Source: a virus
Direction: 5' to 3' (one strand)
IMG/VR virus record: IMGVR_UViG_3300048833_000740
Coordinates: 1-44,890 of that record
DNA: 44,890 nucleotides
Shown piece after piece: positions 19,098 to 43,239 of this stretch. Every line of letters starts with the position of its first letter. The first letter of the stretch is position 1. The notes under the pieces were generated by a model. The model was not told where the DNA came from and searched no databases. It saw nothing but the letters and a program-made list of their open reading frames with translations. The position numbers and the translations under genes were made by a program.

Positions 19098-19127
19098 GAA
19101 AACCCAGCTTATTCAGACTGGGTTTTC
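19098..19127 (-). terminator. minus-strand terminator containing the stop codon of the ribbon-helix-helix gene
   Basis: GAAAACCCAG and CTGGGTTTTC form a 10-base stem around a 10-base loop that contains the TAA at 19109-19111 (minus strand). A T-rich tail follows on the minus strand. The second cassette also has its stop codon inside a hairpin. Confidence 0.65.
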
Positions 19128-19276
19128 GATGATCTTTTTTCAAGACATTGACTAAGGTAATCCCCGGCAATATCCTTGACTGTTGACCGAGATTCTTTAT
19201 TCAATTTTTTCTCAAGCTGAATTTTCAATAATTCATCATGAGCCTTATCGGTGATTTCTACTGTTAATTTTTTCAT
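19109..19276 (-). CDS. ribbon-helix-helix repressor-like protein, cassette copy A
   Basis: This 55 aa minus-strand frame starts MKKLTVEITDKAHDELLKIQ, and was found by reading the region by eye. The layout of a short strand (LTVEI), a first helix and a second helix starting SRSTVKDIAG is that of Arc/MetJ/Mnt-type repressors. It is the likely repressor of the divergent antirepressor gene. A TAnnTTTG promoter ends 4 bases before its ATG, implying a leaderless message. A close relative lies at 41877-42044 in the second cassette copy. Confidence 0.7.
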   Translation of the reverse strand: MKKLTVEITDKAHDELLKIQLEKKLNKESRSTVKDIAGDYLSQCLEKRSSKTQSE

Positions 19277-19280
19277 GAGT

Positions 19281-19288
19281 CAAATATA
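19281..19288 (-). promoter_or_regulatory. promoter -7 element (TATATTTG) of the minus-strand repressor gene
   Basis: Read on the minus strand this is TATATTTG, matching the Bacteroidota TAnnTTTG. It ends 4 bases before the ATG at 19276, so transcription would begin at or very near the start codon. The -33 position matches poorly. Confidence 0.6.
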
Positions 19289-19328
19289 GAAATTAAAAAT
19301 AATCAATAGAAGTATTTGGAAATTAAAA
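19289..19328. promoter_or_regulatory. candidate operator: two GAAATTAAAA direct repeats
   Basis: GAAATTAAAA occurs at 19289-19298 and 19319-19328, exactly 30 bases apart, about three helical turns. The copies lie between the divergent start sites, and the second overlaps the forward promoter spacer. They are natural candidates for binding by the ribbon-helix-helix protein. Confidence 0.5.
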
Positions 19329-19345
19329 TAAACGGTTTACATTTG
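19315..19345 (+). promoter_or_regulatory. Bacteroidota-type promoter of the antirepressor gene
   Basis: TTTG (19315-19318), exactly 19 bases, then TACATTTG (19338-19345) is a full match to the Bacteroidota housekeeping promoter. The antirepressor ATG is at 19385. Confidence 0.8.
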
Positions 19346-19384
19346 TTTCCATCAACAACCATTAGAAACCAAAAATTATTAAGT

Positions 19385-19972
19385 ATGGAAAATCAAAATA
19401 AAAGACACACACAACTGGAAATTCTCAAAGATTTCGAATTTGCTAAAACTCCTGTTATGGCCTGTATGATGCACACGGGTGAAATGATTGCTTTACGCCC
19501 ATGTGTAGAAAACCTTGGTTTAAACTGGTCTGGACAACTTCAGGCAATTAAGAGAAATGAAAAAATAGACCAGTTGTGTGCATCGGTAAAGGCCTTGGGT
19601 AAGGATGGCAAAAAGTACGATATGGTTTGTTTGCCTCCTGCCGCTTTTCAAGAATGGTTATGGAATCTAAATTCCAAATCTGAAAATTTAAATATCCCTC
19701 TTTGGGAAGAATACAAGAAAGGATTAGTCCTTCACATACTCATGATGCTCAAAATTTCCCTAGACGAAGTCACCAGGCTTAAAATCGTTGAAGCGGACTT
19801 TACCCAATTGAAAAAAATGGTAGTGGACTACTTCAAAAAGAATGAATTGAAAAACGAACGGCAAAAAGAAGCCAGGGAGTATTCAACGCAGGAAAAAGAA
19901 CTAAAGGATTCTATTAAAGAATTTATTTCCAAAGACCCGAACCAATTGGGACTGAACCTTATATTAAACTAA
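19385..19972 (+). CDS. P22_AR_N-type antirepressor, cassette copy A
   Basis: From the ATG at 19385, after the promoter, the product is 195 aa. The upstream start at 19316 would lie inside that promoter. Residues about 16-115 fit the phage antirepressor N-terminal domain: MIALRPCVENLGLNWSGQLQ, the predicted turn at LGKDGKKYDMVCLPP, then FQEWLWNLN. The C-terminal part is a lysine/glutamate-rich helix. Such proteins inactivate phage repressors in P22-type systems. It diverges from the ribbon-helix-helix gene and has a homologue at 42145-42711. Confidence 0.75.
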   Translation: MENQNKRHTQLEILKDFEFAKTPVMACMMHTGEMIALRPCVENLGLNWSGQLQAIKRNEKIDQLCASVKALGKDGKKYDMVCLPPAAFQEWLWNLNSKSENLNIPLWEEYKKGLVLHILMMLKISLDEVTRLKIVEADFTQLKKMVVDYFKKNELKNERQKEAREYSTQEKELKDSIKEFISKDPNQLGLNLILN

Positions 19973-19992
19973 AAACAAAAAACAGCAAATAA

Positions 19993-20029
19993 AGCAAACC
20001 GAGGTGGGGATTCCCCACTTCGGTTTGCT
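19993..20029. repeat. long GC-rich hairpin after the antirepressor gene
   Basis: AGCAAACCGAGGTGGGG pairs with CCCCACTTCGGTTTGCT, forming a stem of about 17 pairs with one wobble pair. There is no T-run directly after it, so a classical terminator is not certain. It may act as a 3' end stabiliser. Confidence 0.65.
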
Positions 20030-20100
20030 CCAAAGTCACTTTTTACAATCTAAAATAGTAGCGGAAGTGTGGATATTGAACCGATTATAACCAAAAAAAA

Positions 20101-20125
20101 CCCCGGTAGTTCTCAGCTACCGGGG
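20101..20125. promoter_or_regulatory. conserved hairpin before the 150 aa gene, copy A
   Basis: CCCCGGTAG / CTACCGGGG with a 7-base loop follows eight A residues and stands 43 bases before the ATG at 20169. The copy at 42718-42740 has the same A-tract, CCCCGG core and 7-base loop, and it stands 43 bases before its own ATG. The plus-strand side lacks a T-run, so it may be a leader element and not a terminator for upstream genes. Confidence 0.55.
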
Positions 20126-20168
20126 CCAAGATCAAAACAAAGTTTCAACCTTTAATCGCCAAACGATT

Positions 20169-20621
20169 ATGACAAAATTAGAAAATGCTACAGAGATTAT
20201 CAGGCTGTTGGAAGTTTTTTATGTGGCCAAGCCAGCTGAACTGCCCCAAAAAGTAATGGACTGCATCGAATACCTGACCAAAGGACAGGGCTACGCCCGG
20301 AGAAACATGCCAAATTCTTATGAAAATGACTTCTCGGAATCCATCAAAGTCCTTAAGAAGCTTCACGAATGCTTCACTGACTGCCAAAAAGAACCTGAAA
20401 GAGGCATGTTATTGACTGACAAAAGGGAGGGATTTAGCGTGAACATCAAGCCGATACTTGAATTTTTACAGTTTATGAAGCAAAACGGTACCGCCTGCCG
20501 CAATTTTGACATGGTGGAATCCCTCATGGTCATCTATCTCTATGAAGACAATATCCAGGAATTCAAAAAAGTCTCCTCATTCATCCGCAATGTAGAGACG
20601 GCTTTGTATGAATATGAGTAA
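20169..20621 (+). CDS. hypothetical conserved cassette protein, copy A
   Basis: This 150 aa protein is about half identical to the 151 aa product at 42784-43239. Shared blocks include LLEVFYVA, ERGMLL, FSVNIKPILEFLQFM (VNIRPVLDFLKFM in copy B), VIYLYEDNIQEFKKVS and ETALYEY. It is helical and acidic with no known motif or membrane segment. In both copies it follows an antirepressor gene and a GC hairpin, so it is a recurrent third member of the cassette. Function unknown. Confidence 0.7.
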   Translation: MTKLENATEIIRLLEVFYVAKPAELPQKVMDCIEYLTKGQGYARRNMPNSYENDFSESIKVLKKLHECFTDCQKEPERGMLLTDKREGFSVNIKPILEFLQFMKQNGTACRNFDMVESLMVIYLYEDNIQEFKKVSSFIRNVETALYEYE

Positions 20622-20650
20622 ATGTGGTTTGTGTTTTTCGTTGTTGGAAA

Positions 20651-20678
20651 GATCCCTGTTTTGCAGGGATTTTTTTTT
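20651..20678 (+). terminator. terminator ending cassette A
   Basis: ATCCCT and AGGGAT close a 7-base loop and are followed by eight T residues, 30 bases after the stop of the 150 aa gene. Confidence 0.8.
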
Positions 20679-20717
20679 GTCCTATTCCCCTCCTTTTCAT
20701 CCCCGGATATTTAAGTC

Positions 20718-21038
20718 ATGATCCTACTCTCACAGGCACTTGACAGGATGAACACCCGTGACCACAAAGGCATTCCCGTGCCTTTTTCGCTCTCTTTTGC
20801 CACAGCTGATGAGGGCAAAAACACCGGTGGCGAAATCATCTCTATCAAAAAAGCGGTACTCGGAAAGCTCCTCAAAACAGCTCCCCAGGCTGACAAAGTC
20901 CAGGAAACTCTGGCCGAAAAAAAGCCCTTCCGAAAAGCCAACTCGGTCAAGAGGATCTTTGACCTCGAGACCGACCGCTACTATACCGTCCATATCCGGC
21001 TGATGTGGCTATTCAATGGACAAGAAATCTGCTGGTAA
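20718..21038 (+). CDS. hypothetical late protein preceding portal
   Basis: This 106 aa basic protein (MILLSQALDRMNTRDHKGIP) has a beta-rich C-terminus (YYTVHIRLMWLFNGQEICW). It overlaps the portal gene by 23 bases. I believe related small proteins occur before portal genes in Bacteroidota prophages, but no function is known to me. A minor structural or assembly role is likely from position. Confidence 0.55.
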   Translation: MILLSQALDRMNTRDHKGIPVPFSLSFATADEGKNTGGEIISIKKAVLGKLLKTAPQADKVQETLAEKKPFRKANSVKRIFDLETDRYYTVHIRLMWLFNGQEICW

Positions 21039-22425
21039 CATGGCAATAGAAACCTTAGAGCTCGAGGAAAACCCGGATGTTTTCATTTCCTATTCCTCAG
21101 CCACAAAATCCGCTTACACTTCCAACACCAAAGGCAAGCCCTCAACGGTGCAGCCTGATGATTTGGAGTCCATCACCGCCGATGATGTCGCTCTTTGGGG
21201 AACAAAAAACGACTTTCCCCAGCAGATTGAGAAGCATATAGAGTCCAACCCGGACCTTGCAAACGTGCTGCAGTACAAAGCCCTGAAGCTCTACTCCTAC
21301 GGAGTCACTTACAAGGCCATGGTCCAGGATGAGGAAGGAAATGTCAAGTACATCGATCTGGTTATTCCGGAGATTGAAAAGTGGCTCAAGCGCAACCGCA
21401 CTTTTTACCTGAAGGCATGCGTGGACATGGTCAAATACTACAACATCTTCCCGGAGATTGTCCTTTCCTTGGATCGCTCTCAGATTTTGTATGTCAGCTG
21501 CAAGGAAACCAAGGAATGCCGCTTCTCTATCATGGATAAGATCCTCGGCTATTCCAAAAACGTCTACCTATCACCCAATTGGGCATTTGGAGCAACTGTT
21601 AAAGACGATAAAACCGTCACAATTCCGGTCGCCAACCCCATTTATTTTCCGCCCGAGCTCCTCCGGGAACGTTCCGATGGACTGAATTACATCATTCCTA
21701 TCTCTTTTCCGACAGGCAAAAAGTACTACCAACTCGCCACTTGGACGGCAATCATCATCAGCAAGTGGCTCGAACTGGCCAATTCCATCCCCAAGTTCAA
21801 GCTGGCACTGATGAATAATCAGATTGCCATTAAGTACCACATCCAGATGCCTGACTATTGGATGAAATGGAAGTTTCCAAAGTTTGAATCCCTCACCCAG
21901 GACGAAAGGAAAAAGCTTACCGATGCTGAAGTCAAAAAATTTGATGACTTCCTTGTCGGAGTGGAAAAAGCAGGAAAATCCATAACCTCCATTTTCAAAA
22001 CTGACCCTGCCACCGGTAAGGAATGGCCCGGATGGAGGATAGTCCCGATTGATGACAAGATCAAGGACGGCAAGTACATCGAGGATGCCCAGGAAGCCAC
22101 CACCAAAATTTACAGCGCAAACGGCGTAGATCCTGCCATTGGCGGATTTACTCCAGGCAAGTCTGGTGCCAACCGCAACGGATCAGACAAACGCGAAGCC
22201 GGCAATGAATTATACACTTCCATTTACGCATTCGAAGAGCTGATCTGTCAGATTTTCGATTATGTGACTGAGTTCAATAATTGGGATGCCCTCGCAATGA
22301 AGCAGCTGAAAGGAAAATACCCTTTTGCCATGTTGGTCTGGGGCTCTGTCAAAGCCTACCAACAAACCCTGAATCAAGTCACACCAGCAGAAAGAGAGGC
22401 TACCAATGATCCAATTCAAGACTGA
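21016..22425 (+). CDS. portal protein
   Basis: This 469 aa protein has the size and layout of a phage portal: an N-terminal Asp/Ser-rich region, a central helical/strand domain (YKALKLYSYGVTYKAMV near residue 90), and GVDPAIGGFTPGKSGANRNG (about residues 372-391) in the later part. It forms the ring through which DNA passes. The call relies on overall pattern and neighbours. It is separated from terminase by cassette A, which is unusual. It overlaps the next gene by 20 bases. Confidence 0.7.
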   Translation: MDKKSAGNMAIETLELEENPDVFISYSSATKSAYTSNTKGKPSTVQPDDLESITADDVALWGTKNDFPQQIEKHIESNPDLANVLQYKALKLYSYGVTYKAMVQDEEGNVKYIDLVIPEIEKWLKRNRTFYLKACVDMVKYYNIFPEIVLSLDRSQILYVSCKETKECRFSIMDKILGYSKNVYLSPNWAFGATVKDDKTVTIPVANPIYFPPELLRERSDGLNYIIPISFPTGKKYYQLATWTAIIISKWLELANSIPKFKLALMNNQIAIKYHIQMPDYWMKWKFPKFESLTQDERKKLTDAEVKKFDDFLVGVEKAGKSITSIFKTDPATGKEWPGWRIVPIDDKIKDGKYIEDAQEATTKIYSANGVDPAIGGFTPGKSGANRNGSDKREAGNELYTSIYAFEELICQIFDYVTEFNNWDALAMKQLKGKYPFAMLVWGSVKAYQQTLNQVTPAEREATNDPIQD

Positions 22426-23368
22426 CATGATCAAGGAGCGGATCAGCTCCACCACTACCTTCAATCCGCAGCTGCACATGGCGCATATCAACCGCGCCTA
22501 TCGCAACCAGATAGAAAAGTTCTTTCCGGAGGATAATTATGAAGCTTTGGGCACTGAGTTGGAAACTCCACTGGCGGATGGATCCACTTCCGAGCTTCAG
22601 GCCGAAAGGAAGAAAAAGGAAAAGGTTTTTTCCCTGTTCTATGATGCCCTTGCCAACCTAGGCTATTACTACAGCATTCCCCACCTGGAGGTGACAGTCA
22701 CTTCCGGAGGAATCGTGTCGATCAAGACAGCTGATAGGGAAAAAGCCGATGCCCGTCAGATCATCCGACTCGAAAAATCCTTTGCTGAAGCCGGTCTGGA
22801 AAACCTTGACCGCATGTTGAAATACCTTCAAAAGGAAGCGGCTTTGTTCTCATGGTTTGCAGCTGCTTTTGCAGGCTCCGGGACCAAAAAACTATTGGTA
22901 TACAATGCCGAGGTATTCCAGGAATCCGTCGATATAGGAGCCTCATTTTTGGTATATGCCCAGCTGCGCCCGGTGATCAGACACGTCGAAGACCTGGAGC
23001 TGCTGCCGCTGATCGGTCAGGCGCGCTATGATTCCATTTTGGATCCACTTCCGGGAACCGATCCCAATTTTGCCCTTCAGCAAAATTCCCGTGCCTTCGT
23101 CACCCTCCGTGCCATGGCCGATGGCCTCAGGATGAAAGATGTCGGGATGAGTGAAAAAGGCGTGTATCAGATTTTTATCGAAAACAAAGACTATGGCAAA
23201 CTACCGGTTGCACAGCCTGCCATTGCCGAAAAAATCAACATGCTCAATCAGCTTGCACGCCAGTACAAAGAAACAATAGAAGCCATCATCACGCCGCCTG
23301 TTGAGGGTGAGGACGGTATTGTAGGTATCAACAGAGAAGACAGCGGATTCTTTCACACATGGGGATAA
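22406..23368 (+). CDS. structural protein (possible DUF6712 family)
   Basis: This 320 aa protein directly follows the portal gene. It starts MIQFKTDMIKERISSTTTFN and contains helical repeats and blocks such as AERKKKEKVFSLFYDALANL and LGYYYSIPHLEVTVTSGG. The position and general pattern match proteins of the DUF6712 type in Bacteroidota phages, a family I think is structural. The exact role, head completion or connector, is not visible. It overlaps the holin gene by 10 bases. Confidence 0.5.
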   Translation: MIQFKTDMIKERISSTTTFNPQLHMAHINRAYRNQIEKFFPEDNYEALGTELETPLADGSTSELQAERKKKEKVFSLFYDALANLGYYYSIPHLEVTVTSGGIVSIKTADREKADARQIIRLEKSFAEAGLENLDRMLKYLQKEAALFSWFAAAFAGSGTKKLLVYNAEVFQESVDIGASFLVYAQLRPVIRHVEDLELLPLIGQARYDSILDPLPGTDPNFALQQNSRAFVTLRAMADGLRMKDVGMSEKGVYQIFIENKDYGKLPVAQPAIAEKINMLNQLARQYKETIEAIITPPVEGEDGIVGINREDSGFFHTWG

Positions 23369-23853
23369 TAGAGAGATTACTTAGTGCCAAATCAATTCTG
23401 GCATTCAAATTAGCCTTGGCCACTTCACCGGTCATGTTCATGATTGAGAAATACATCTTCAGGGATTGGGAATTCCTGCGATGGGTCATCATCCTCATTG
23501 TATTGGATCTTATCTGGGCCCTGAGAGTGGCATGGAAAAAAAGGAATATATCCCTGCGAGGCTTCGAAAAGTCCGGAGAAAAACTTGCTCAATATGCCAC
23601 GCTCCTGATTCTTGGCCATATACTCCTTCATATCAGGTCGGACAACGAGCCCATCACTGTGCTTTCCTACTTCACGATGATCATCCACACTTACATAGTG
23701 ACCCGGGAAGCAATCAGTATCCTCGAAAAGCAAATTCTCATCAATCCTAAATATGTACCCAACTGGCTTCTCCAACGGCTCAAAACCTTTAATGAAACAG
23801 GCAAAACCGAAGACCTCCAAGCAAAAGACCATGAAAAAACAACTGAGAATTGA
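23359..23853 (+). CDS. holin (phage lysis membrane protein)
   Basis: This 164 aa protein has four probable membrane segments: about residues 12-29 (ILAFKLALATSPVMFMIE), 39-57 (FLRWVIILIVLDLIWALRV), 79-95 and 101-118. A polar C-terminal tail follows. This matches phage holins of the larger multi-pass type, which open the inner membrane at the end of infection. The next gene is a lysis-type enzyme and a spanin candidate follows. It overlaps the structural gene upstream by 10 bases. Confidence 0.75.
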   Translation: MGIIERLLSAKSILAFKLALATSPVMFMIEKYIFRDWEFLRWVIILIVLDLIWALRVAWKKRNISLRGFEKSGEKLAQYATLLILGHILLHIRSDNEPITVLSYFTMIIHTYIVTREAISILEKQILINPKYVPNWLLQRLKTFNETGKTEDLQAKDHEKTTEN

Positions 23854-24235
23854 AAGGTTCAAGACTACCGAAAATAGCACCATAGGAATGCTTTTCGTGG
23901 ACAATGTTTTTGTCTGCTTCACCTTGGAGCTTGCGTGGCGAGGCAATGCACCAAAGCGGTCCTGCATCCCTGCCGGTAGGTATCCTATTGTATTCAGAAA
24001 TGATCCCGGGTCCAAATACAAATACCTACACCTCCATGTCAGGGATGTTCCGGGAAGAGAATGGATTCTCTTTCACATCGGTAATTTTCCGAAAGACACC
24101 CTTGGTTGTGTCCTGCCAGGATTGACCCATGGATTGGACAGTGTAGGTGGTTCTACCAAGGCGTTCAATAAACTCATGGATCACCTGAAAGGCGCTACCC
24201 AGATGAGTCTAACCATCGAAAACAAAACGCCATGA
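23831..24235 (+). CDS. DUF5675 family lysis-associated protein
   Basis: This 134 aa protein starts at ATG 23831; the longer frame from 23753 overlaps the holin gene and is rejected. It has the DUF5675 signature: IPAGRYPIVFRNDPGSKY, then LFHIGNFPKDTLGCVLPG with His82, Asn85, Asp89 and Cys93. The H-x-G plus T-x-G-C pattern resembles the active site of L,D-transpeptidase-type peptidoglycan enzymes, which supports a cell-wall role as endolysin, but activity is not proven. It overlaps the holin gene by 23 bases and the spanin candidate by 4. Confidence 0.65.
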   Translation: MKKQLRIERFKTTENSTIGMLFVDNVFVCFTLELAWRGNAPKRSCIPAGRYPIVFRNDPGSKYKYLHLHVRDVPGREWILFHIGNFPKDTLGCVLPGLTHGLDSVGGSTKAFNKLMDHLKGATQMSLTIENKTP

Positions 24236-24711
24236 AAAATTACCTCTACCTGCTTTTAGCCCTTGTTTTGGCGTGTAAGACTGTCAAGACCGACACGCAG
24301 ATCCGCGAGAGATTTGATTTTGATATCATTGAAGCTCCCGAGTTCGATTTTCTTTCCCTTGGCCAGTCCATTGACCTTGGAGGTGTCACATTGACCAAAC
24401 TGGAAGGAAACAAAGCAGCTGTAACCTCACCCGAAAAAACCACGGAACAGCAATCAACCGGAACCACAAACAAAGTCAAAGACAAATCAAAAACTAAAGT
24501 CAACATCAACTCCGGAAATTCCGTCAAAGATAAATTTAAGGATAAAAGCAAGGACAAATCCCAATCCGGAATAGATAAGAGCAAAACCAAAATCGAAGTC
24601 CCCAAAAAGTCATTCCTGAGGTGGATATTTGTTTTTGTCCTATTGGCTATCGGTGCGATTTGGTTTTTTTATCCTAGGATCAAAAAAGCCATCAAACCAC
24701 CATTCCTTTGA
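24232..24711 (+). CDS. putative single-molecule spanin (lipoprotein with C-terminal membrane anchor)
   Basis: This 159 aa protein has an N-terminal lipoprotein signal with LVLAC, the cysteine being residue 15. A Lys/Asp/Ser-rich linker with DKSK-type repeats spans about residues 80-125, and a C-terminal hydrophobic segment lies at about residues 131-147 (WIFVFVLLAIGAIWFFY). A lipid anchor at one end and a membrane span at the other, placed right after holin and lysis enzyme, is the architecture of single-molecule spanins that fuse inner and outer membranes. It overlaps both neighbours by 4 bases. Confidence 0.65.
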   Translation: MKNYLYLLLALVLACKTVKTDTQIRERFDFDIIEAPEFDFLSLGQSIDLGGVTLTKLEGNKAAVTSPEKTTEQQSTGTTNKVKDKSKTKVNINSGNSVKDKFKDKSKDKSQSGIDKSKTKIEVPKKSFLRWIFVFVLLAIGAIWFFYPRIKKAIKPPFL

Positions 24712-25529
24712 ATAAGCTATTTTACAACGGAGCCAATTACATCGAAATCCCGGGCAAATGGGAAGAGCTGGAGCGCTGGCAGATCGCCGCTCTCATTACA
24801 CACTTACACCAACCCGCAGACATCCACCTGCACCGGATCTCCTCCCTCCTGATCCTTGCAGCTACCAAAAACCATATTCAGCACCAGGGCATCATTGCCG
24901 GTCTTTCTGAGGAAAACCGCTATGATGTTGCCAAGTTCATGACCTATTGGCTGTATGATAAGCCCATTTATTTCACCCATAATCCCTTCCAAAAATTCAA
25001 AGGCTACTATGGCCCGGGTAAGGATTTCAGATACATGTATTTCGAGGAATTCATCAAGGCTGAAAAGTATTACAACACCTACGCCAAAGAACAGGATCCA
25101 TCCGCCTTGGACGGCCTGATCAGCTGCCTCTATCGGCCTAAGAGGTGGAAGTTTGACAAATCAAATCCCCTTAATCCCGAAGATTGCAGGGTATTGTATT
25201 CAGGCAAGCTTCAGGAAACCATGGCCGCCAAAGTCAAAGAATGGCCTGCTGAAATGAAGCTTTCACTGTTCTATTGGTTTGATTCCTGCCTTCAGCTGCT
25301 GGTCAAGACATTTCCCTGGGCATTCACTCCCGGAGAGACCATCGGGCCGAAGCTCAGGAATGACAGTCCCAAAACACTCTACCACATCGCCCGCGAACTG
25401 GCCAAAGGCATCGAACTGGAAAAAGTCCTCAGCCGCCCTGTGGTACCTGTCTTTTTTGAGCTGAATGAAGCCCGGATTGATGCTGAAAAAATGAAACTGG
25501 AGTATAAGCAAAACCAAAAGAAAAAATGA
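24708..25529 (+). CDS. hypothetical tail-region protein
   Basis: The start is a TTG within a 4-base TTGA overlap with the spanin-like gene, giving 273 aa. It is helical and aromatic-rich (YIEIPGKWEELERWQIAALI), with no signal peptide. The position between lysis and tail genes, and the length, would suit a tail assembly protein, but I do not recognise the family. It overlaps the next gene by 4 bases. Confidence 0.5.
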   Translation: MNKLFYNGANYIEIPGKWEELERWQIAALITHLHQPADIHLHRISSLLILAATKNHIQHQGIIAGLSEENRYDVAKFMTYWLYDKPIYFTHNPFQKFKGYYGPGKDFRYMYFEEFIKAEKYYNTYAKEQDPSALDGLISCLYRPKRWKFDKSNPLNPEDCRVLYSGKLQETMAAKVKEWPAEMKLSLFYWFDSCLQLLVKTFPWAFTPGETIGPKLRNDSPKTLYHIARELAKGIELEKVLSRPVVPVFFELNEARIDAEKMKLEYKQNQKKK

Positions 25530-26032
25530 CCATCGCCCAATACGACAGCTACTTTGAGACCATTGCCGGACAGCTCGCAGCCATTGGCCACACTCCCAGC
25601 AAGCCCAGGTATGCCCACTACCACATCGAGGAAGTGATAGTCGGACTCAGATCCAGTCTTGATCTCTCCGATTATTGTCTCCTTCAGGAAGATATCTCAG
25701 GACAGATCCAGTCCAAAGCCGATGAAGCTGTCAACGACATGCAGACAGGCGCCATTATGATTGTCAAGCATGTGCCGCACGATGACTTTGCCACCGAAAG
25801 GCAGGTCTTGGACCGGTCCTTGGTATTGGCCAAGCAAGTGGCCGCACGGATGATTGCCGACAAAAGACTGGCCATCCAGGGCAGCCTACCGGCTTTCCTC
25901 CGAGGACTCAATGTCTCCGGGTTTTACTACGAAAAAGCCCAGAACATCTTCGATCACTGCTTTGGGTACCGTCTCGAGTTCCAATACACCACCTCCGAGC
26001 ACCTTCTCATCAATCCCGATGAATGGCTTTAA
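25526..26032 (+). CDS. hypothetical late protein
   Basis: This 168 aa protein contains a helical N-terminal half (YFETIAGQLAAIGHTPSKPR) and a C-terminal region with aromatic and histidine residues (FDHCFGYRLEFQYTTSEHLL). It starts in an ATGA overlap with the previous gene. No motif is recognised. It could be a tail completion or assembly factor. Confidence 0.5.
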   Translation: MTIAQYDSYFETIAGQLAAIGHTPSKPRYAHYHIEEVIVGLRSSLDLSDYCLLQEDISGQIQSKADEAVNDMQTGAIMIVKHVPHDDFATERQVLDRSLVLAKQVAARMIADKRLAIQGSLPAFLRGLNVSGFYYEKAQNIFDHCFGYRLEFQYTTSEHLLINPDEWL

Positions 26033-26051
26033 CCAATTAACCCCTTCAAAC

Positions 26052-26531: not shown

Positions 26532-26584
26532 ATTGAAAGTATAGTTTCTTGCTTTCATAATATTTTTATATTTTTCTTTAAAAT

Positions 26585-36676: not shown

Positions 36677-37105
36677 ATGGCAGAGGGGAAGATTGGAGAG
36701 GTACAGGCCTATGTAGACTCATGGGCAGATAAGACCGACGAAGTCCTATTGATGATGATCCGCAGGCTGGACATCGAGGACACGGGAGAATTATTTAAAT
36801 CCGTGCAGAGCAAAGTCTATCAGATGGCCGGGGATGCCATCGGATACGACCTTAATTTTTTGCTCCATGGCCGGTACCGAGACATGGGCGTAGGCCGTGG
36901 CCGTGGGAAAAACATCGCCACCAAAATCGAATCCACCAGCACCAACAGGGAGATAATTCGGGGCAAAGGCCGCACCAGACTCAAGCCCGGACGATGGTAT
37001 TCCCGCCCCTTCTACGGTCGGCTCAATGCCCTCCAGGGAGCCATCGGCTACGCCATGATGGAGCAGACAATCCAGTCAGTAATTAAACCGCTCAAAGATG
37101 GTTAG
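36677..37105 (+). CDS. hypothetical late protein upstream of tape measure
   Basis: This 142 aa protein is basic at its C-terminal half (GVGRGRGKNIATKIESTST, then KGRTRLKPGRWYSRPFYG). It has no signal peptide or membrane segment. Its position just before the tape-measure gene fits a tail-completion or assembly protein, but the family is not certain. It overlaps the next gene by 8 bases. Confidence 0.5.
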   Translation: MAEGKIGEVQAYVDSWADKTDEVLLMMIRRLDIEDTGELFKSVQSKVYQMAGDAIGYDLNFLLHGRYRDMGVGRGRGKNIATKIESTSTNREIIRGKGRTRLKPGRWYSRPFYGRLNALQGAIGYAMMEQTIQSVIKPLKDG

Positions 37106-40100
37106 GAAGGATACCGTACAGGTACGGATGGAGATTGATGGTAAACAATCGATCTCGGAAATTGGAAAAACCGAAATGGCCGCTTATGATCTTAAACAAG
37201 AAATTAAAGGCATAAGAGAAGAGCAATCAAAATGGGAAAAGGAATCAAAAGACTTAGAAAAGTCTAAGGATAGAATTGATCAACTGACAAAAAAAGTCGA
37301 AAAACTGGTATTGGCAGGCAAAGAAAATACCAAGGAGTATAAACGAACTGTAGATCAATTAAAAAAAGCAGAGACTTCGTATGAACAAGCAGCTTCCGCA
37401 GCCAAAAAACTAAATGACTCCCAAGTAAAAGTTAAATCTCTCGAAAAGAGTCTTGATGGTGTTACTAATACTTTAAGAAAGCAACGAGAAGAAGCTGGAT
37501 TGGCAGGGATGACAATGCGACAACTAGTTTCTCATCAAAGAGACCTAGTTAGGCAGCAAAGTAATTTAACGAGAGGAACGGAAGAATACGCAAAAGCAAC
37601 ATCCAAGCTTCAAGAAGTTAATAAATACATTGCTAATCAGCGGGCCGAAGTCCGGGGCTTGGATTCTGCTTGGCAAAAAGTCAGGACAGAGATTACCCGC
37701 TTTGGTGTTTTGGCACTCGGATACCTCGGGGCTCAGGAGATCATAGGTCGGATCGGAAACCTGATCAAAGGTTCTGCAGAACTTTCGGATGCGCTTTCGG
37801 ATGTGCAGAAAACCACCGGACTGGCCAACGAATCCGTCAAAGACCTTTCCCAGACATTTGGCCAGTGGGATACCCGCACCCCTCGCAAAGACCTCTTGGC
37901 CATGGCCGAGATAGCCGGTCGATTGGGGATCAATGGCAAAAAGGACATCGAAGGCTTTGTCAAAGCTGCCGACATGATCGCAGTTTCTCTGGGTGATAGC
38001 CTCGGGGAAGTCGAAACCGTCATGCGTGAGCTCGGGAAGCTTACCAGTACCTACAACATCAAGGAAGCTTATGGCATCGAAGAATCCCTGCTGAAAGTAG
38101 GATCCGCTATCAATGAACTCGGCATGGCCAGTACAGCCAACGAATCCAATATTGTCGACTTCACCAAGCGGATGGGCGGGATTGCACCATTGGCCAAGAT
38201 CAGCATTCAGGACATCATGGGCTTGGGAGCCACTTTGGATTCTCTTGGACAGACTTCCGAGGTATCCAGTACTGCGCTTTCCAAGCTATTTATCAACATG
38301 GCCAAAAATGCGACCACCTATGCGAAGTTTGCAAGGATGGAAGTGGCTGACTTTGTCAAGCTGATGAATGAAGATGCCAATGCAGCATTTATCAAAGTGC
38401 TCGAAGGTGTCAAAGCCAACTCCGGAGGGATCACCGAACTGGCCGAAAGCCTAGGAGACCTGGGCGAAGATGGCGGCCGGGTGGTTGGTGTATTGGGAAC
38501 CTTAGTGAATAATATTGAAGCCCTTAAAACCCAGCAGGCACTATCAAACAAGGCTTTTAAGGAAGGAACTTCTATATGGGAAGAATTTAAAACCAAAAAT
38601 GAAAACCTGGCAGCTTCACTGGCCAAGGTCCAAAAGTGGATCAATGGGGTATTAATTAATAATATGTTTTTGGACTTCTTAGATAAATCCATCGGGAAAT
38701 TGGCAGATTGGGCTTTAGGAATCGACGTTGCCACCAAATCTTTTGAAAATCAACTGAAATATGTTGAAAAATTAGAGGCCAATCTCCCGGATTTGACAGA
38801 CAGGTACGATGAACTTACTTCATACACTGTCCTCAATACAGAACAACAGGAAGAATTAAGGGTTGTGATTGACAAGATTGCAAAGCTGGTACCTACTGCG
38901 ATTACCGAGTTTGACAAATATGGAAATGCAATTGCCATCAGTACGGAAAAGGTAGACAAGTTTACAGCAGCTCAAAAAGCCGCGCTGAAAGTCAAAAATG
39001 CTGATGCAATCGAAGAGCAACAAAAAGAGCTTAAAAAATTAAATAGTCAAATTTCTCAAACTGAGCAACTTCTAAATCAAAGGGATGAGGAAGGGGATTT
39101 GTTTAAGGTGGTAGAAAGAGGAGCAAGAGGAGCTCAAGAGCCGGTAAAACTTTTGGCAAATGAAATTGAAGAACTTCAAAAAAGGCTTGCTGGATTACAA
39201 GAGAAAAAACTGGGCACAGTGACAATCATTGGAGATCTTTTGGGATTAGATCCTGCCATGGATGAGGAGGCTGAAGCTCAGAAACAAGCAGCTGCCGCTG
39301 AAGCAGCAAGAAAAGCCGCTGAAGAAGCGGAAAAACTTGCGGAGGCGGAACGCAAGAAAAGAGCAGAGGAACAAAAGGCCGCCGCTGAGGAGAAATACAA
39401 AGAGCTGATCCAGAAGTTCAAGGACTTCCAAGGTGAAATCGCTCAGTTGGAATCTGAGGCTGAAATATCCGCAATGGACAAGGACAGTCAAGATATTGCC
39501 CGAATTGAGTCCAAGTTCCAGACACTCCGGGACAAAGCCCTGGAATATTATACCCAAGGCACCATTGACAAACAGACCTATGATCAGACCATTGCTGACA
39601 TAGAAGCCCTCCAGACTGAGCAGGTCAATGCCAAAATTGATGAGCAATCCGAAAAGCTCAAAGAAAAGCGGGCCAAGCTTGCAGAAGACATCGAGATGGC
39701 CACCATGGATGACCACGACCGGCAGGTTGCGGCCACGGCCAAGCGATTTGATGAACTCATTGCCCAAGCCCAGGAATTTGGCTTGTCCACCATCGAGCTG
39801 GAGAAGGCAAAGCTTGCGACCATTGAGGATCTGAACCAAAAACACAATGACAGGATCAGAGATAATACCGCAAAATCCAATCAGGAAAGGCTTCAGGATG
39901 AAATTCAGGTAAAGCAGGCACTCATTGACATCAACCTGGAATATGCCAACATTGCCGGAGCTGCTATTGACTTGATCGGAAATAAGTCCGGACAGCTGAC
40001 AGCATTCCAAAAAATACTGGCACTAACCCAAATAGGGATTGATACAGCAGCAGCTATCATGAAGGCTGAGATTATCGCTCTTCAGGCCGCATCTGTAGGA

Positions 40101-40682
40101 GGGCCGGCAGCACCGTTTATTTATAAGGCTACCAAGTTGAGCATATTGGGATCCATCCTTACAGCTGCCTCCCGTGCAAAAAACATCCTGTTTGATTCCG
40201 GTGATCCAAGCTGGGGAGGAGGAGCCGAATCCTCTGCCGGTGAATCGGCAGCACCTCAGGCAAGGAGGGGAAATGTATCCGGAAAGAGATCCTACTACTT
40301 TGGAGGAGAAACCGGGGATGGAATGGGCTTTGGTGACCAATACGGTGAGTTTGCGGGATACGTTCACAAGCATGAGTATGTCATCCCGCAGTCTGTAAGG
40401 CAGGAACCAATTGTGCAGATGCAGATTGAGCCGATCCTTGAGGCACTCCGGATGAAGAAAATGGGAAGAAGCTATTTCCTAGGCGGTCCCACTGATGCAG
40501 TACCATCCAAATCTCCTGAAATTCCAAAAGGCAACCGAGATGCTGAAATAATTGACCTCCTATCCAAAATCCTTTACCAAACCCAGCTATGGCCTAGGGA
40601 AATAACAGGAAAATGGGATTATATTTCGTTCAAAGAAATTGAAGACGAGTATAATAATCTTCAGAAAAGGTATAAGGCATGA
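37098..40682 (+). CDS. tape measure protein
   Basis: At 1194 aa this is the longest protein in the window. It has a long coiled coil at about residues 20-190, then a TP901-type core (GNLIKGSAELSDALSDVQKT, AMAEIAGRLGINGKKDI, GGIAPLAKISIQDIMGLGA). An Ala/Glu/Lys-rich coil spans about 710-950, and a hydrophobic stretch (GIDTAAAIMKAEIIALQAAS, near 975-1025) follows. It sets tail length and is probably passed through the membrane. Length in residues suggests a tail of about 180 nm by the usual 0.15 nm per residue. It is placed after the fibre genes, which is unusual. Confidence 0.85.
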   Translation: MVRKDTVQVRMEIDGKQSISEIGKTEMAAYDLKQEIKGIREEQSKWEKESKDLEKSKDRIDQLTKKVEKLVLAGKENTKEYKRTVDQLKKAETSYEQAASAAKKLNDSQVKVKSLEKSLDGVTNTLRKQREEAGLAGMTMRQLVSHQRDLVRQQSNLTRGTEEYAKATSKLQEVNKYIANQRAEVRGLDSAWQKVRTEITRFGVLALGYLGAQEIIGRIGNLIKGSAELSDALSDVQKTTGLANESVKDLSQTFGQWDTRTPRKDLLAMAEIAGRLGINGKKDIEGFVKAADMIAVSLGDSLGEVETVMRELGKLTSTYNIKEAYGIEESLLKVGSAINELGMASTANESNIVDFTKRMGGIAPLAKISIQDIMGLGATLDSLGQTSEVSSTALSKLFINMAKNATTYAKFARMEVADFVKLMNEDANAAFIKVLEGVKANSGGITELAESLGDLGEDGGRVVGVLGTLVNNIEALKTQQALSNKAFKEGTSIWEEFKTKNENLAASLAKVQKWINGVLINNMFLDFLDKSIGKLADWALGIDVATKSFENQLKYVEKLEANLPDLTDRYDELTSYTVLNTEQQEELRVVIDKIAKLVPTAITEFDKYGNAIAISTEKVDKFTAAQKAALKVKNADAIEEQQKELKKLNSQISQTEQLLNQRDEEGDLFKVVERGARGAQEPVKLLANEIEELQKRLAGLQEKKLGTVTIIGDLLGLDPAMDEEAEAQKQAAAAEAARKAAEEAEKLAEAERKKRAEEQKAAAEEKYKELIQKFKDFQGEIAQLESEAEISAMDKDSQDIARIESKFQTLRDKALEYYTQGTIDKQTYDQTIADIEALQTEQVNAKIDEQSEKLKEKRAKLAEDIEMATMDDHDRQVAATAKRFDELIAQAQEFGLSTIELEKAKLATIEDLNQKHNDRIRDNTAKSNQERLQDEIQVKQALIDINLEYANIAGAAIDLIGNKSGQLTAFQKILALTQIGIDTAAAIMKAEIIALQAASVGGPAAPFIYKATKLSILGSILTAASRAKNILFDSGDPSWGGGAESSAGESAAPQARRGNVSGKRSYYFGGETGDGMGFGDQYGEFAGYVHKHEYVIPQSVRQEPIVQMQIEPILEALRMKKMGRSYFLGGPTDAVPSKSPEIPKGNRDAEIIDLLSKILYQTQLWPREITGKWDYISFKEIEDEYNNLQKRYKA

Positions 40683-41266
40683 CATTGTTAGACAATATTT
40701 CGGAGGCATACAAAACACTCTCTATAGGAAGTTCATTCCTGTATCGATCCATGAAACTGGTAGAAATGGAAAAACAAATCTATCCATGTCTAGGCATGTT
40801 TGAATACCACCGGAGGTGCATTAAGGATGCTTTCCAAGCATTATCTTATCTAAAAAGCTGCTTAGAAGAATATCAGAAAGGGATTTTTACAGACCCTTAT
40901 TTTGAAAAAATGATGTTGATTGGCCGATCTGTCCCAAAAAGGGATTTCAATGGTTATCTCAAGGATATAATTGAAGAAATCACATTACCGGACGATATTG
41001 AATCGGGATTTGCAGAGGCAGAAAGGGTAATTGAAGCCTTTCAGTCCAAATTTCTAAAAGATCATGGGTATGTTCTTGATATGGAAGAGGAATCAAGAAA
41101 TATAATTTATCTTGATCAACATCAACATTTACAAAATTTTGGAGAAAGGAAAATTAAACATTTTGAAGTTTCCTTTTTCGTGGTTCAATTGAACGAATTC
41201 AAAGCCATAGCGGCCAAAGTACTTCAAGGAAAAGAACCAGCAGAATCATTATTGCTTTTACTTTAA
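40679..41266 (+). CDS. hypothetical helical late protein
   Basis: This 195 aa helical protein overlaps the tape-measure stop by 4 bases, so it is co-translated with it. It contains charged helices (FEYHRRCIKDAFQALSYLKS) and ends in a run of leucines (AESLLLLL). The position suggests a tail-related or late accessory role. No motif is recognised. Confidence 0.55.
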   Translation: MTLLDNISEAYKTLSIGSSFLYRSMKLVEMEKQIYPCLGMFEYHRRCIKDAFQALSYLKSCLEEYQKGIFTDPYFEKMMLIGRSVPKRDFNGYLKDIIEEITLPDDIESGFAEAERVIEAFQSKFLKDHGYVLDMEEESRNIIYLDQHQHLQNFGERKIKHFEVSFFVVQLNEFKAIAAKVLQGKEPAESLLLLL

Positions 41267-41274
41267 ATCAATCC

Positions 41275-41292
41275 ACGTAAGTCACGTAAGTT
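41275..41292 (+). repeat. two further GTAAG repeats
   Basis: CACGTAAGT occurs twice in a row (GTAAG at 41277 and 41286), a 9-base spacing. The motif is the same as in the arrays at 10001-10140. It lies directly after the last late gene. Confidence 0.65.
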
Positions 41293-41333
41293 GGCTTTAT
41301 GACTCCCCTCCTAAGCCAATAAAAAAAATATTT

Positions 41334-41353
41334 TCCCCTTTCGAGGGGATTTT
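41334..41353 (+). terminator. terminator after the late genes
   Basis: TCCCCT and AGGGGA close a TTCG tetraloop, with an A-run before and T after. It separates the late operon from the TerB-like gene. Confidence 0.75.
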
Positions 41354-41399
41354 ATATTTTTAGGTCTAAACATTAACCTTAACCTAAACAAAAAAAATT

Positions 41400-41861
41400 A
41401 TGGGACTATTCGACCGGATTTTTAGCTCCACCAATTCACAGGTAATCTATTCTCCTGTAAATCAGCAAGAAGCTGCAATTGGAATTATGTATGCATGCAT
41501 GGCTGTAGATGGCAACGTTTCCGAAATTGAAACTGACAAAATGCTTCAACTTGCCGTTTATAAAGAACAATTTACAAATCACGATATTGTTGAATACTAT
41601 AAACGAGTTGCTATAATTCATCGATCATTGGGTAGCAAATCAATTATTGAAAGTGCGGCTTCAAAAATTGATTCAAAATTTAAACCAACACTATTTGCTT
41701 TGATTATGGATTTGGTCTTGTCAGACGGAATTTTGGATGATAAAGAAAAAGAAATTGCAGAGTTTTTAGCGGGAGCGTTGAAAATAGAAGATGAGCTTGC
41801 TTCAAAAATTGTTGAGGTTATGATGATTAAAAATGAAGGAAATATTGTGATATTCGATTAA
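41400..41861 (+). CDS. TerB-like protein (accessory)
   Basis: This 153 aa protein resembles TerB/TerB-like helical proteins. Residues 36-42 (VDGNVSE) and 109-116 (DGILDDKE) are paired acidic helix-cap motifs, with central helices such as LMDLVLSDGILDDKE-type spacing. TerB proteins are linked to tellurite and stress resistance and occasionally phage inhibition, but no tellurite operon is seen here. It stands alone between terminators, as expected for an accessory gene. The sequence composition is more AT-rich than the late genes. Confidence 0.65.
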   Translation: MGLFDRIFSSTNSQVIYSPVNQQEAAIGIMYACMAVDGNVSEIETDKMLQLAVYKEQFTNHDIVEYYKRVAIIHRSLGSKSIIESAASKIDSKFKPTLFALIMDLVLSDGILDDKEKEIAEFLAGALKIEDELASKIVEVMMIKNEGNIVIFD

Positions 41862-41863
41862 AC

Positions 41864-41903
41864 AAAAAACCCCGGCCTACTTGGTCGGGGTTTCTTTTTT
41901 GTT
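41864..41903. terminator. bidirectional terminator containing the stop codon of the second repressor gene
   Basis: CCCCGGCC / GGTCGGGG with a 5-base loop at 41870-41890 has A-run and T-run flanks and can act on both strands. The TAG of the minus-strand gene (41877-41879) lies in this hairpin. Confidence 0.75.
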
Positions 41904-42044
41904 GTTTAGTAAACACCTTTCAAGAGTGTCACTGGCCACATTTTGCAACGTGGCCCTGCCCATTTTTTTAATTTTTCGCTCGGACTGAATTTTAATTAAT
42001 TCAGTATGGGCATCATCCGAAATCTCTACTAGGAATTTTTTCAT
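41877..42044 (-). CDS. ribbon-helix-helix repressor-like protein, cassette copy B
   Basis: This 55 aa minus-strand frame starts MKKFLVEISDDAHTELIKIQ and ends LERCLLNNKKETPTK. It is exactly the same length as the copy at 19109-19276 and similar along its whole length (a strand, a first helix, a second helix after GRATLQNVAS). It is therefore the likely repressor of the divergent antirepressor gene in this second cassette. The -7 element ends 4 bases before the ATG, as in copy A. Confidence 0.7.
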   Translation of the reverse strand: MKKFLVEISDDAHTELIKIQSERKIKKMGRATLQNVASDTLERCLLNNKKETPTK

Positions 42045-42048
42045 GTAT

Positions 42049-42056
42049 CAAATCTA
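42049..42056 (-). promoter_or_regulatory. promoter -7 element (TAGATTTG) of the second repressor gene
   Basis: Read on the minus strand this is TAGATTTG, matching TAnnTTTG. It ends 4 bases before the ATG at 42044. The -33 position is TTTT instead of TTTG. A leaderless message is implied, as in copy A. Confidence 0.6.
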
Positions 42057-42060
42057 AATG

Positions 42061-42103
42061 AATCAAAAAGATTTTAAAAGTTTTTCTTTGTTTTCTTTTG
42101 ATT
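42061..42103. promoter_or_regulatory. candidate operator between the divergent genes
   Basis: AATCAAAA (42061-42068) and TTTTGATT (42096-42103) form an 8-base inverted pair between the divergent promoters. The region is AT-rich, so chance similarity is possible. Confidence 0.35.
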
Positions 42104-42127
42104 TTGGTTTTAAATAGTTTTACTTTG
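42097..42127 (+). promoter_or_regulatory. Bacteroidota-type promoter of the second antirepressor gene
   Basis: TTTG (42097-42100), exactly 19 bases, then TTACTTTG (42120-42127), one mismatch from TAnnTTTG. The ATG is at 42145. Confidence 0.65.
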
Positions 42128-42144
42128 ATTCAATATAAAACTAA

Positions 42145-42711
42145 ATGAAATTAAAAGATATGAAAGAAACAACCCGAACGGTAGCTGTTATCAACAACAG
42201 CAAAATCCTAGTCATCGAAAATGGCCAGAAGATTGTGCCTATCAAGCCCATTTGTGAAGCTCTTGGAATTGACGTAGACAGTCAAAGACAGAAGATAAAA
42301 GATGATCAGATTTTATCTTCAGTTGCGGTGCTGAGCACCGCAACTGGATCGGATGGAAAGCAGTATGAAATGTTCTGTCTTCCTCTCAAATATGTATTCG
42401 GATGGCTCTTTACTATCAATCCATCTAACGTCAAAGAAGAGGCTAAGGAAGCCGTGATTCAATACAAGGAGGCTTGTTATGATGTGCTTTTCCAAAGCTT
42501 CACGGATGCTTCCGAATTCCTCTCAGATAAGCAGGTAGCTATCAATCATCTGATGGATGAGCACAAGGCCGCTAAGAAAAACTTTCAGGAAGCAAATAAA
42601 ACCATGAAGGCTACTGAAAAGGCTTTGGATGATGCTGTTGGGATGAGCTTTGATGTATGGCTGGCAAATAACCGCCAGATGAATCTGTTTGCCCCAAGTG
42701 AGCAGGAATAA
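42145..42711 (+). CDS. P22_AR_N-type antirepressor, cassette copy B
   Basis: This 188 aa protein has the antirepressor N-terminal domain: KIVPIKPICEALGIDVDSQR, then LSTATGSDGKQYEMFCLPLK and FGWLFTINP. The C-terminal part is a long helix. It shares its plan, and a visibly similar core (GKKYDMVCLP in copy A, GKQYEMFCLP here), with the protein at 19385-19972. It diverges from the ribbon-helix-helix gene and is probably repressed by it. The role would be to inactivate a phage repressor. Confidence 0.75.
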   Translation: MKLKDMKETTRTVAVINNSKILVIENGQKIVPIKPICEALGIDVDSQRQKIKDDQILSSVAVLSTATGSDGKQYEMFCLPLKYVFGWLFTINPSNVKEEAKEAVIQYKEACYDVLFQSFTDASEFLSDKQVAINHLMDEHKAAKKNFQEANKTMKATEKALDDAVGMSFDVWLANNRQMNLFAPSEQE

Positions 42712-42717
42712 AAAAAA

Positions 42718-42740
42718 CCCCGGAGGTCAGAACTCCGGGG
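42718..42740. promoter_or_regulatory. conserved hairpin before the 151 aa gene, copy B
   Basis: CCCCGGAG / CTCCGGGG around a 7-base loop follows an A-tract. It stands 43 bases before the ATG at 42784, the same spacing as the matching hairpin in copy A. Both copies also share CCTTTAA and end in TTATGAC at the start of the gene. Confidence 0.55.
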
Positions 42741-42783
42741 CTAAAGATTAAAGTATTTATTAACCTTTAACGCTGTTAACGTT

Positions 42784-43239
42784 ATGACCAAATTAGACAA
42801 TTCAGGCCATATAATGTGCCTATTGGAAGTTTTTTATGTTGCACCCCCCGCAGACCTTCCATCCTTAGTCCAGAATACCATCGACTTTCTCCATCAAGGA
42901 TTCACTTGGGCTTCCCGGCACCTGCCTATCCCCTATGAGGATGACTACCGCCAAGCGATCATCGTTCTGAAGAAGCTAAAGGAATGCTTCACTGCCTGTA
43001 ATTCCATGCCGGAACGTGGCATGCTGCTCTTTGACGGAAAGGAAAACTTTCAAGTCAATATCAGACCGGTTCTTGATTTCCTGAAGTTTATGGAAGGCGA
43101 AGGAACCTCTATGAGGAATTTTGATCTGATAGAATCCATCCTGGTCATCTACCTGCATCAGGACAATATCCAGGAGTTCAAAAAAGTAAGCACATTTATC
43201 CGAAACATCGAAACCGCTCTCTACGAGTACCAAAACTGA
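42784..43239 (+). CDS. hypothetical conserved cassette protein, copy B
   Basis: The 151 aa product is the paralogue of the protein at 20169-20621, with about half of its residues identical by eye (for example VLKKLKECF, ERGMLL and NIQEFKKVSTFIRNIETAL). It follows an antirepressor gene and a hairpin, as in copy A. No motif points to a known function. Retention in both copies suggests it matters to the cassette. Confidence 0.7.
   Translation: MTKLDNSGHIMCLLEVFYVAPPADLPSLVQNTIDFLHQGFTWASRHLPIPYEDDYRQAIIVLKKLKECFTACNSMPERGMLLFDGKENFQVNIRPVLDFLKFMEGEGTSMRNFDLIESILVIYLHQDNIQEFKKVSTFIRNIETALYEYQN

What the first reader, a model, noticed from the sequence alone, without database searches (positions are those of the whole stretch)
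19109..43239. A three-gene regulatory cassette is present twice in one prophage
Copy A (19109-20621) and copy B (41877-43239) each have a 55-codon minus-strand ribbon-helix-helix gene, a divergent P22_AR_N antirepressor gene, a GC hairpin preceded by an A-tract, and a 150-151 aa protein that is about half identical between copies. All these elements are seen directly. P22 immI uses ribbon-helix-helix repressors (Mnt, Arc) against Ant, so the family logic is known. The duplication and the conserved third protein are not explained by it. The two copies may detect different signals or control different regions.
Basis: partly seen in the sequence, partly recalled or inferred. Interest (0 to 1): 0.75.

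Follow-up and report, generated by a model that had tools for sequence, protein, structure and literature searches.

The report
Twice-carried antirepressor cassette in Bacteroidota phage
A virus of Bacteroidota bacteria carries two diverged copies of a small self-contained gene switch, built like the secondary immunity switch of Salmonella phage P22 but with an antirepressor that ends in a likely docking tag for the DNA-replication clamp.

Summary
Both cassettes are at the stated coordinates: a 55-aa minus-strand gene, a divergent P22_AR_N gene (ant), an A-tract/GC hairpin and a 150/151-aa gene. Corrections: the third proteins are 61% identical, not half; the two Ants only 24%; and the ribbon-helix-helix (RHH) fold of the 55-aa proteins was not confirmed by any test.

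The full trio recurs in one unrelated phage contig. Two more contigs have the 55-aa gene, ant and hairpin, with a third gene that is only weakly similar or unrelated. Cassettes sit at different late-gene junctions and once in reverse, with their own divergent Bacteroidota promoters and terminators. That matches P22 immI, an insulated island in the late operon. Carrying 2-3 ants is common (8 of 39 ant-bearing records). Ant B is 67% identical to another phage's Ant, so cassette genes were exchanged.

Two unexpected features emerged. Bacteroidota Ants lack the P22-type C-terminus and mostly end in a beta-clamp-binding motif (38 of 48; 1.6 expected). P22_AR_N genes in two phyla carry a covarying intragenic palindrome at one codon position (66 of 71 Bacteroidota genes with at least 10 of 13 pairs). 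Ant A has lost it.

The third protein is an orphan. Function is inferred throughout.

The parts
19014..19048 (.). copy A outer boundary: bidirectional terminator-like hairpin (A-run, GC stem, T-run); a second hairpin 19098-19127 overlaps the 3' end of the 55-aa gene
   Evidence: the same kind of hairpin lies at the 3' end of the 55-aa gene in B, L005, L046 and L084
19109..19276 (-). copy A 55-aa putative RHH-type regulator
   Evidence: ORF; 53% identity over 45 aa to the B copy; RHH fold not confirmed
19281..19288 (-). -7 promoter element TATATTTG of the 55-aa gene, 4 nt before its ATG (near-leaderless)
   Evidence: TAnnTTTG consensus from PMC7366714
19338..19345 (+). -7 promoter element TACATTTG of ant A
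   Evidence: 8 TAnnTTTG sites in four intergenic regions against 0.84 expected
19385..19972 (+). ant A: P22_AR_N domain plus coiled-coil-like tail, 195 aa (open frame from 19316)
   Evidence: Pfam PF10547 E 7.5e-15
19943..19960 (+). codons for QLGLNL, hexapeptide-type beta-clamp-binding motif at the C-terminus of Ant A
19993..20029 (.). 18-bp-arm palindrome with 1-nt centre (17 of 18 paired), 20 nt after the ant A stop; found in copy A only
20093..20125 (-). A-tract plus GC hairpin: a rho-independent-type terminator when read on the minus strand, 44 nt before the third gene
20169..20621 (+). copy A third gene, 150-aa orphan protein
   Evidence: 61% identical to B, 24% to the L005 third gene (E 2.7e-8; z 10.9); no Pfam, PHROG, NCBIfam, PADLOC or fold match
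20648..20674 (+). terminator-like hairpin with T-run after the copy A third gene
41860..41901 (.). copy B outer boundary: bidirectional terminator-like hairpin overlapping the 3' end of the 55-aa gene
41877..42044 (-). copy B 55-aa putative RHH-type regulator
42049..42056 (-). -7 element TAGATTTG of the 55-aa gene, 4 nt before its ATG
42121..42127 (+). -7-like element TACTTTG of ant B (one base short of the consensus)
42145..42711 (+). ant B: P22_AR_N plus coiled-coil-like tail, 188 aa (a second possible ATG at 42160)
   Evidence: Pfam E 1.5e-33, PHROG 524 anti-repressor Ant E 5.3e-38
42320..42346 (.). intragenic 27-bp palindrome (13/13 paired, 1-nt centre) in ant B, at a codon position shared by P22_AR_N genes of two phyla; absent from ant A
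42676..42690 (+). codons for QMNLF, pentapeptide-type beta-clamp-binding motif
42710..42740 (-). A-tract plus GC hairpin starting at the ant B stop: terminator when read on the minus strand
   Evidence: several below-threshold sRNA terminator matches on the minus strand
42784..43239 (+). copy B third gene, 151-aa orphan protein

Best explanation
Each copy is an insulated, separately transcribed regulatory island built like P22 immI and inserted between late genes. The 55-aa protein, probably a DNA-binding repressor, is made from a near-leaderless promoter and sits back to back with the ant promoter; it keeps ant and the third gene silent in the lysogen. A terminator overlapping its 3' end shields the island from upstream late transcription. 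When repression lapses (zygotic entry or prophage replication), Ant and the third protein are made together. Ant acts as a protein-level antagonist (antirepressor) and is tethered through its C-terminal QLxLF-type tail to the beta sliding clamp, so it works on replicating DNA. The minus-strand terminator between ant and the third gene stops antisense transcription before it reaches ant. The window holds two such islands that share a frame (55-aa gene and third gene 45% and 61% identical) but carry Ants of different lineages (24% identical), so ant was exchanged by recombination and the two probably have different targets. Shown: the anatomy, homologous cassettes elsewhere, promoter and terminator signals, the tail motif, and mosaic ancestry. 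Inferred: repression by the 55-aa protein, antirepression, clamp binding, and the trigger.
For: P22_AR_N in both copies. Trio in L005 with a homologous third protein (z 7.2-10.9), and 55-aa gene + ant + hairpin in L046 and L084. Cassette positions: terL-portal gap (A, L084), tail-TMP junction (L005 forward, L046 reversed), TMP-integrase gap (B). [quoted passage not shown] in phage Oslo the mnt-like/arc/ant cassette lies one gene before TMP. Divergent TAnnTTTG promoters: 8 sites against 0.84 expected, no shuffle reached it (consensus). Terminators at conserved places. Clamp motif in 38/48 Ants against a shuffled mean of 1.6 and 1/148 windows in the protein bodies (consensus QLxLF in PMC4549789). 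Exchange of ant: Ant B is 67% identical to Ant L005 while the third gene of B is far closer to A (61% against 21%) and its 55-aa gene also closer to A (45% against 33%). 2-3 Ants in 8 of 39 ant-bearing records.
Against: The RHH fold was not confirmed by AlphaFold (one helix 10-50), Foldseek, Pfam or profile comparison with Mnt/Arc. No Arc equivalent. No HTH_3 repressor was found in the window, so no target is identified; the record may be incomplete. Ant is short and lacks the C-terminal part of P22-type Ant. No expression or binding data exist. The third gene is homologous in A, B and L005 only, doubtful in L046 and unrelated in L084. The ant B promoter is one base short of the consensus.
Confidence: 0.5

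Rival explanations
1. Host-takeover or exclusion moron rather than an antirepressor: the Ant-like protein binds the host beta clamp to redirect or inhibit replication (of the host or of a superinfecting phage), with the third protein as partner; the 55-aa protein only limits the dose.
For: Conserved clamp-type C-terminal motif in short Ants; some relatives lie beside primase genes rather than in an immunity region (L006, Leef_1); no HTH_3 repressor in the window; accessory placement between late genes.
Against: The P22_AR_N N-terminus is conserved across phyla with known antirepressors; there is no resemblance to known clamp inhibitors; no PADLOC match and no informative NCBIfam match.
Confidence: 0.3
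2. Ordinary redundancy: a cassette was duplicated or acquired twice and copy A is decaying, with no distinct role for the two copies.
For: Ant A is far from the family consensus, has lost the intragenic palindrome (2 of 13 pairs) and has a weaker domain score. Multi-copy Ants with truncated members occur in tandem arrays (L016, L019).
Against: All three copy A genes are intact. Its promoters match the consensus better than those of B, its clamp motif is kept in the hexapeptide form, and its third protein remains 81% similar to that of B.
Confidence: 0.15
3. RNA-based control: the minus-strand terminator ends a short antisense RNA started inside the third gene that covers its start codon, analogous to P22 sar RNA on ant.
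For: A-tract/hairpin at the same place in five cassettes, with the T-run only on the minus strand. Below-threshold matches to several sRNA families on that strand. Copy A has a minus-strand TAATTTTG inside the first codons of its third gene.
Against: The minus-strand promoter is not conserved in B, L005 or L046 (direct reading); in B the terminator may simply stop read-through from the converging integrase gene. The sar parallel is from memory.
Confidence: 0.2

Closest known systems
P22 immI (mnt-arc-ant) and relatives in CUS-3, Oslo and Pseudomonas phage UFJF_PfDIW6
   Same: small DNA-binding-type regulator gene divergent from a P22_AR_N ant; island inside or beside late genes; Oslo carries it one gene before the tape measure gene
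   Different: no arc gene; Ant 188-195 aa against about 300 aa; clamp-type tail; extra hairpin and orphan third gene; carried twice; Bacteroidota promoters
Gifsy-type trans-acting antirepressors (PMC3121763)
   Same: small prophage proteins able to act on repressors of other prophages; a precedent for two antirepressors with different targets
   Different: only title and abstract were read; homology to the Gifsy proteins was not tested here
C-terminal beta-clamp-binding motifs of polymerases and transposases (QLxLF; PMC4549789)
   Same: same short motif at the extreme C-terminus after a variable linker
   Different: not described in the papers found here for P22_AR_N proteins; binding not tested

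Membership tests
P22 immI-type cassette | ant gene with a P22_AR_N domain | tested here: met
   PF10547 over the cut-off in both copies
P22 immI-type cassette | divergent ribbon-helix-helix repressor (Mnt) controlling ant | tested here: inconclusive
   divergent 55-aa-type gene present in five cassettes, but the fold was not confirmed
P22 immI-type cassette | second RHH gene (arc) between the promoter and ant | tested here: not met
   no ORF between the promoter element and ant
P22 immI-type cassette | island among late genes with its own promoters | tested here: met
   (promoters by consensus only)
P22 immI-type cassette | Ant inactivates the primary prophage repressor | not testable with these tools
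   no HTH_3 repressor found in the window; needs an experiment
P22 immI-type cassette | full-length Ant with the C-terminal part of P22-type Ants | tested here: not met
   188-195 aa; Pfam P22_AR_N match ends at residue 121, followed by coiled-coil-like sequence and the clamp-type motif
ribbon-helix-helix (Arc/MetJ/CopG) superfamily | strand-helix-helix fold or profile match | tested here: inconclusive
   pattern fits by eye; RHH_1 hits one of five members of A8, not the first window protein, at E 0.022; model shows one long helix; no fold match
beta-clamp-binding proteins | C-terminal QL[SD]LF or QLxLxL/F motif | tested here: met
   38/48 Ants against 1.6 expected; A QLGLNL, B QMNLF
beta-clamp-binding proteins | physical binding to DnaN | not testable with these tools
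   needs pull-down or SPR
known anti-phage defence system or toxin-antitoxin pair | match to a described family | tested here: not met
   no PADLOC match; no informative NCBIfam match for the cassette proteins

The most novel reading that the evidence does not exclude
P22_AR_N antirepressor genes of at least two phyla carry a DNA- or RNA-level palindromic element at a fixed codon position. Its complementarity outlives its sequence and even its amino acids, and similar standalone palindromes follow some ant genes, so the gene contains a functional nucleic-acid element (an operator for a co-evolving repressor, a processing hairpin, or a site for exchange of ant modules). In Bacteroidota the encoded proteins are also tethered to the replication clamp. 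Antirepression would then be a replication-coupled, self-recognising system rather than a simple protein titrator. Copies A and B of the window would be two stages of it, A having lost the internal element and carrying a palindrome just behind the gene.
Probability: 0.35. Interest if true: 0.8.

Novelty: new variant of a known kind. Interest (0 to 1): 0.58.

Why it matters
immI-type secondary immunity has been studied mainly in enterobacterial phages (own knowledge). Here the same logic appears in Bacteroidota phages, twice in one genome, with exchangeable Ants. That makes a testable model of how phages gather several antirepressors. The clamp-type tail links antirepression to replication, and the palindrome in P22_AR_N genes is a strong signal for which I found no account in the papers searched.

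Tried and rejected
Third protein: no significant match in Pfam, PHROGs, NCBIfam, PADLOC, PDB sequence or Foldseek (PDB and viral), nor in annotated phages; 1 weak, stop-interrupted match in 395 Bacteroidota genomes. A link of its C-terminal half to 88-95-aa ORFs that adjoin ants in other phages (A11) looked good by eye but is not supported (hhalign probability 4.5%). L084's third gene is unrelated (z at most 1.4); L046's is only suggestive (z 3.8 to L005).

RHH fold: tested five ways, unconfirmed.

RHH operator: candidate repeats in the intergenic regions (9-bp inverted TGAATCAAA in B, 10-bp direct GAAATTAAAA in A) are not shared and are near chance by rough estimate.

Genome-wide: P22_AR_N is rare (2 of 395 Bacteroidota genomes), so the host could not be placed.

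Hypothesis that an external palindrome replaces a lost internal one: not significant (Fisher p 0.14).

Strand test on palindrome mismatches: no RNA strand preference (43 against 39).

L003 match to the third protein: 23 residues only, rejected.
Full report
1. THE OBSERVATION. Both cassettes exist as described. Each has a 55-codon minus-strand gene, a divergent gene with the P22_AR_N domain (Pfam E 7.5e-15 and 1.5e-33; PHROG 'anti-repressor Ant'), an A-tract/GC hairpin and a 150/151-aa gene. Between copies the 55-aa proteins are 53% identical over 45 residues, the Ants 33% over 63 residues and 24% overall, and the third proteins 61% over their whole length. The window is an IMG/VR virus record of 44,890 bases. 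It has an integrase next to a cut tRNA at its right end, with terminase, portal, tail and tape-measure genes in phage order.

2. ANATOMY OF A CASSETTE. Reading A, B and three cassettes found elsewhere (L005, L046, L084) side by side gives a common plan. (a) A terminator-like hairpin overlaps or follows the 3' end of the 55-aa gene, with an A-run on one side and a T-run on the other in most. (b) Back-to-back promoters: every 55-aa gene in A, B, L005 and L046 has TAnnTTTG 3-19 nt before its ATG, and ant has TAnnTTTG (TACTTTG in B) 17-39 nt before its start. There are 8 exact elements against 0.84 expected, never reached in 5000 shuffles. This is the Bacteroidota -7 consensus (PMC7366714). (c) A GC hairpin preceded by an A-run and not followed by T lies within about 10 nt of the ant stop in B, L005, L046 and L084, and about 130 nt after it in A. 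The stems differ in sequence. Read as a terminator it works on the minus strand, so it does not separate ant from the third gene but blocks antisense transcription towards ant, or ends a short antisense RNA. (d) The third gene.

3. RELATIVES. The third protein was missed by strict searches. Going through Ant found L005, a different phage contig with the complete trio: 55-aa gene, Ant 65-67% identical to B, hairpin, and a third gene 24% identical to that of A (E 2.7e-8; z 10.9). L046 and L084 have the small regulator gene, ant and hairpin, with a third gene that is only suggestively similar (L046) or unrelated (L084). L021 has a looser version. P22_AR_N is rare in Bacteroidota genomes (2 of 395), but 8 of 39 ant-bearing phage records have 2-3 Ants, and tandem arrays with truncated members occur. 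Two Ants in one phage is therefore not exceptional.

4. WHERE CASSETTES SIT. Copy A is between terminase and portal, as in L084. L005 has its cassette just before the tape-measure gene in the direction of the late genes; L046 has it at the same junction in the opposite direction. Copy B is between the tape-measure region and the integrase. [quoted passage not shown] Insulated, orientation-independent islands in late-gene gaps are the common theme.

5. MOSAIC HISTORY. For the third gene, B is far closer to A (61%) than to L005 (21%), and for the 55-aa gene also closer to A (45%) than to L005 (33%). For ant, B is closest to L005 (67%), and A is equally far from all (20-24%). Ant was therefore exchanged in one of the lineages (or ant A evolved very fast). 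The two cassettes are not a recent duplicate.

6. THE C-TERMINAL TAIL. Bacteroidota Ants are about 170-205 aa: P22_AR_N, a coiled-coil-like linker, then a short conserved tail. In 48 Ants under 85% identity, 38 carry Q[LMIPFT]x[LIMF]x?[FL] in the last 40 residues against 1.6 expected from shuffled tails (maximum 7 in 2000) and 1 of 148 body windows. Examples: QLDLF (Leef_1), QLSLF (L047), QLKIDF, QMNLF (B), QLGLNL (A). The five-residue form is the bacterial beta-clamp consensus, which in transposases also sits at the C-terminus (PMC4549789); the six-residue form is known to me from Hda-type proteins (own knowledge). Binding is inferred, and the Ants are related to each other, so the counts are not independent.

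7. THE INTRAGENIC PALINDROME (outside the finding). The codons for SVAVLSTATG in ant B (42320-42346) form a 13/13 palindrome. At the same codon position, 66 non-redundant Bacteroidota ants have 734/858 complementary pairs; no other axis exceeds 307; permuting codons among genes with the same amino acid in the same column gives 676 +/- 5 (z 11.6). Of 71 genes, 66 have at least 10/13 pairs, and synonymous resampling gives far weaker palindromes (8.7 against 4.6). Residues change (VVLSTT, VVMITT, GVTPTT; V..T swapped to T..V) while pairing is kept. The non-Bacteroidota P22_AR_N genes, fetched mostly as controls, average 9.8/13 at this axis (14 genes) against 1.9-5.0 at others, including a CUS-3 gene with different residues and DNA (10/13). 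There is no sense/antisense preference in wobble mismatches (43 against 39). Standalone palindromes of the CAGTTG/CAACTG kind follow some ants within about 50 nt. Ant A has 2/13, but a 17/18 palindrome lies 20 nt behind its stop. Relatedness was not modelled, so z is an upper guide. Quasi-palindrome correction by template switching is the main non-functional alternative. I found no description of the feature in the papers searched.

8. WHAT IS NOT SHOWN. The 55-aa proteins look RHH-like by eye, but no test confirmed it: AlphaFold (4 sequences) gives an extended N-terminus and one helix, Foldseek nothing, Pfam nothing for the window proteins, profile comparison with Mnt/Arc nothing. The third protein is an orphan with a low-confidence, mostly helical model (pLDDT 69) and no fold match. 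No HTH_3 repressor is found in the window. Function, targets and triggers are inference.

9. VERDICT. An immI-like cassette, present twice: a new variant of a known kind. The duplication itself is ordinary for these phages. The clamp-type tail and the palindrome are the surprising parts.

Noticed in passing
window 42320-42346 and the homologous position in P22_AR_N genes of many loci: Covarying 13-bp-arm palindrome inside ant genes of Bacteroidota and Pseudomonadota phages, kept while its sequence and the encoded residues change.
   Followed up: partly
L021 6556, L024, L061 5067, L092 6559, L093 6556, L097 5821, L080: Standalone CAGTTG...CAACTG-type palindromes within about 50 nt after ant stop codons; two in tandem in L061 and L092.
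   Followed up: partly
L016 and L019; L053 (= G417); Pasteurella genome G451: Tandem or multiple P22_AR_N genes in one element, some truncated just after the palindrome or frameshifted.
   Followed up: partly
L055 5408-5695, L084 6738-7004, L111 1392-1670, L053 554-832: An unnamed family of 88-95-aa proteins found next to ants in several phages, on either side of the gene.
   Followed up: partly
window 41400-41861: TerB-like protein (Pfam E 5e-5, just under the cut-off) directly before cassette B.
   Followed up: no
L004 (MZ447863, 'Microcystis phage Mea-Yong924-1'): Terminase 43% identical to the window's and a related tape-measure gene; by gene content it looks like a Bacteroidota phage, so the recorded Microcystis host may be wrong.
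   Followed up: no
window 44813-44890: tRNA on the minus strand cut by the record end, next to the integrase: probable attachment site.
   Followed up: no
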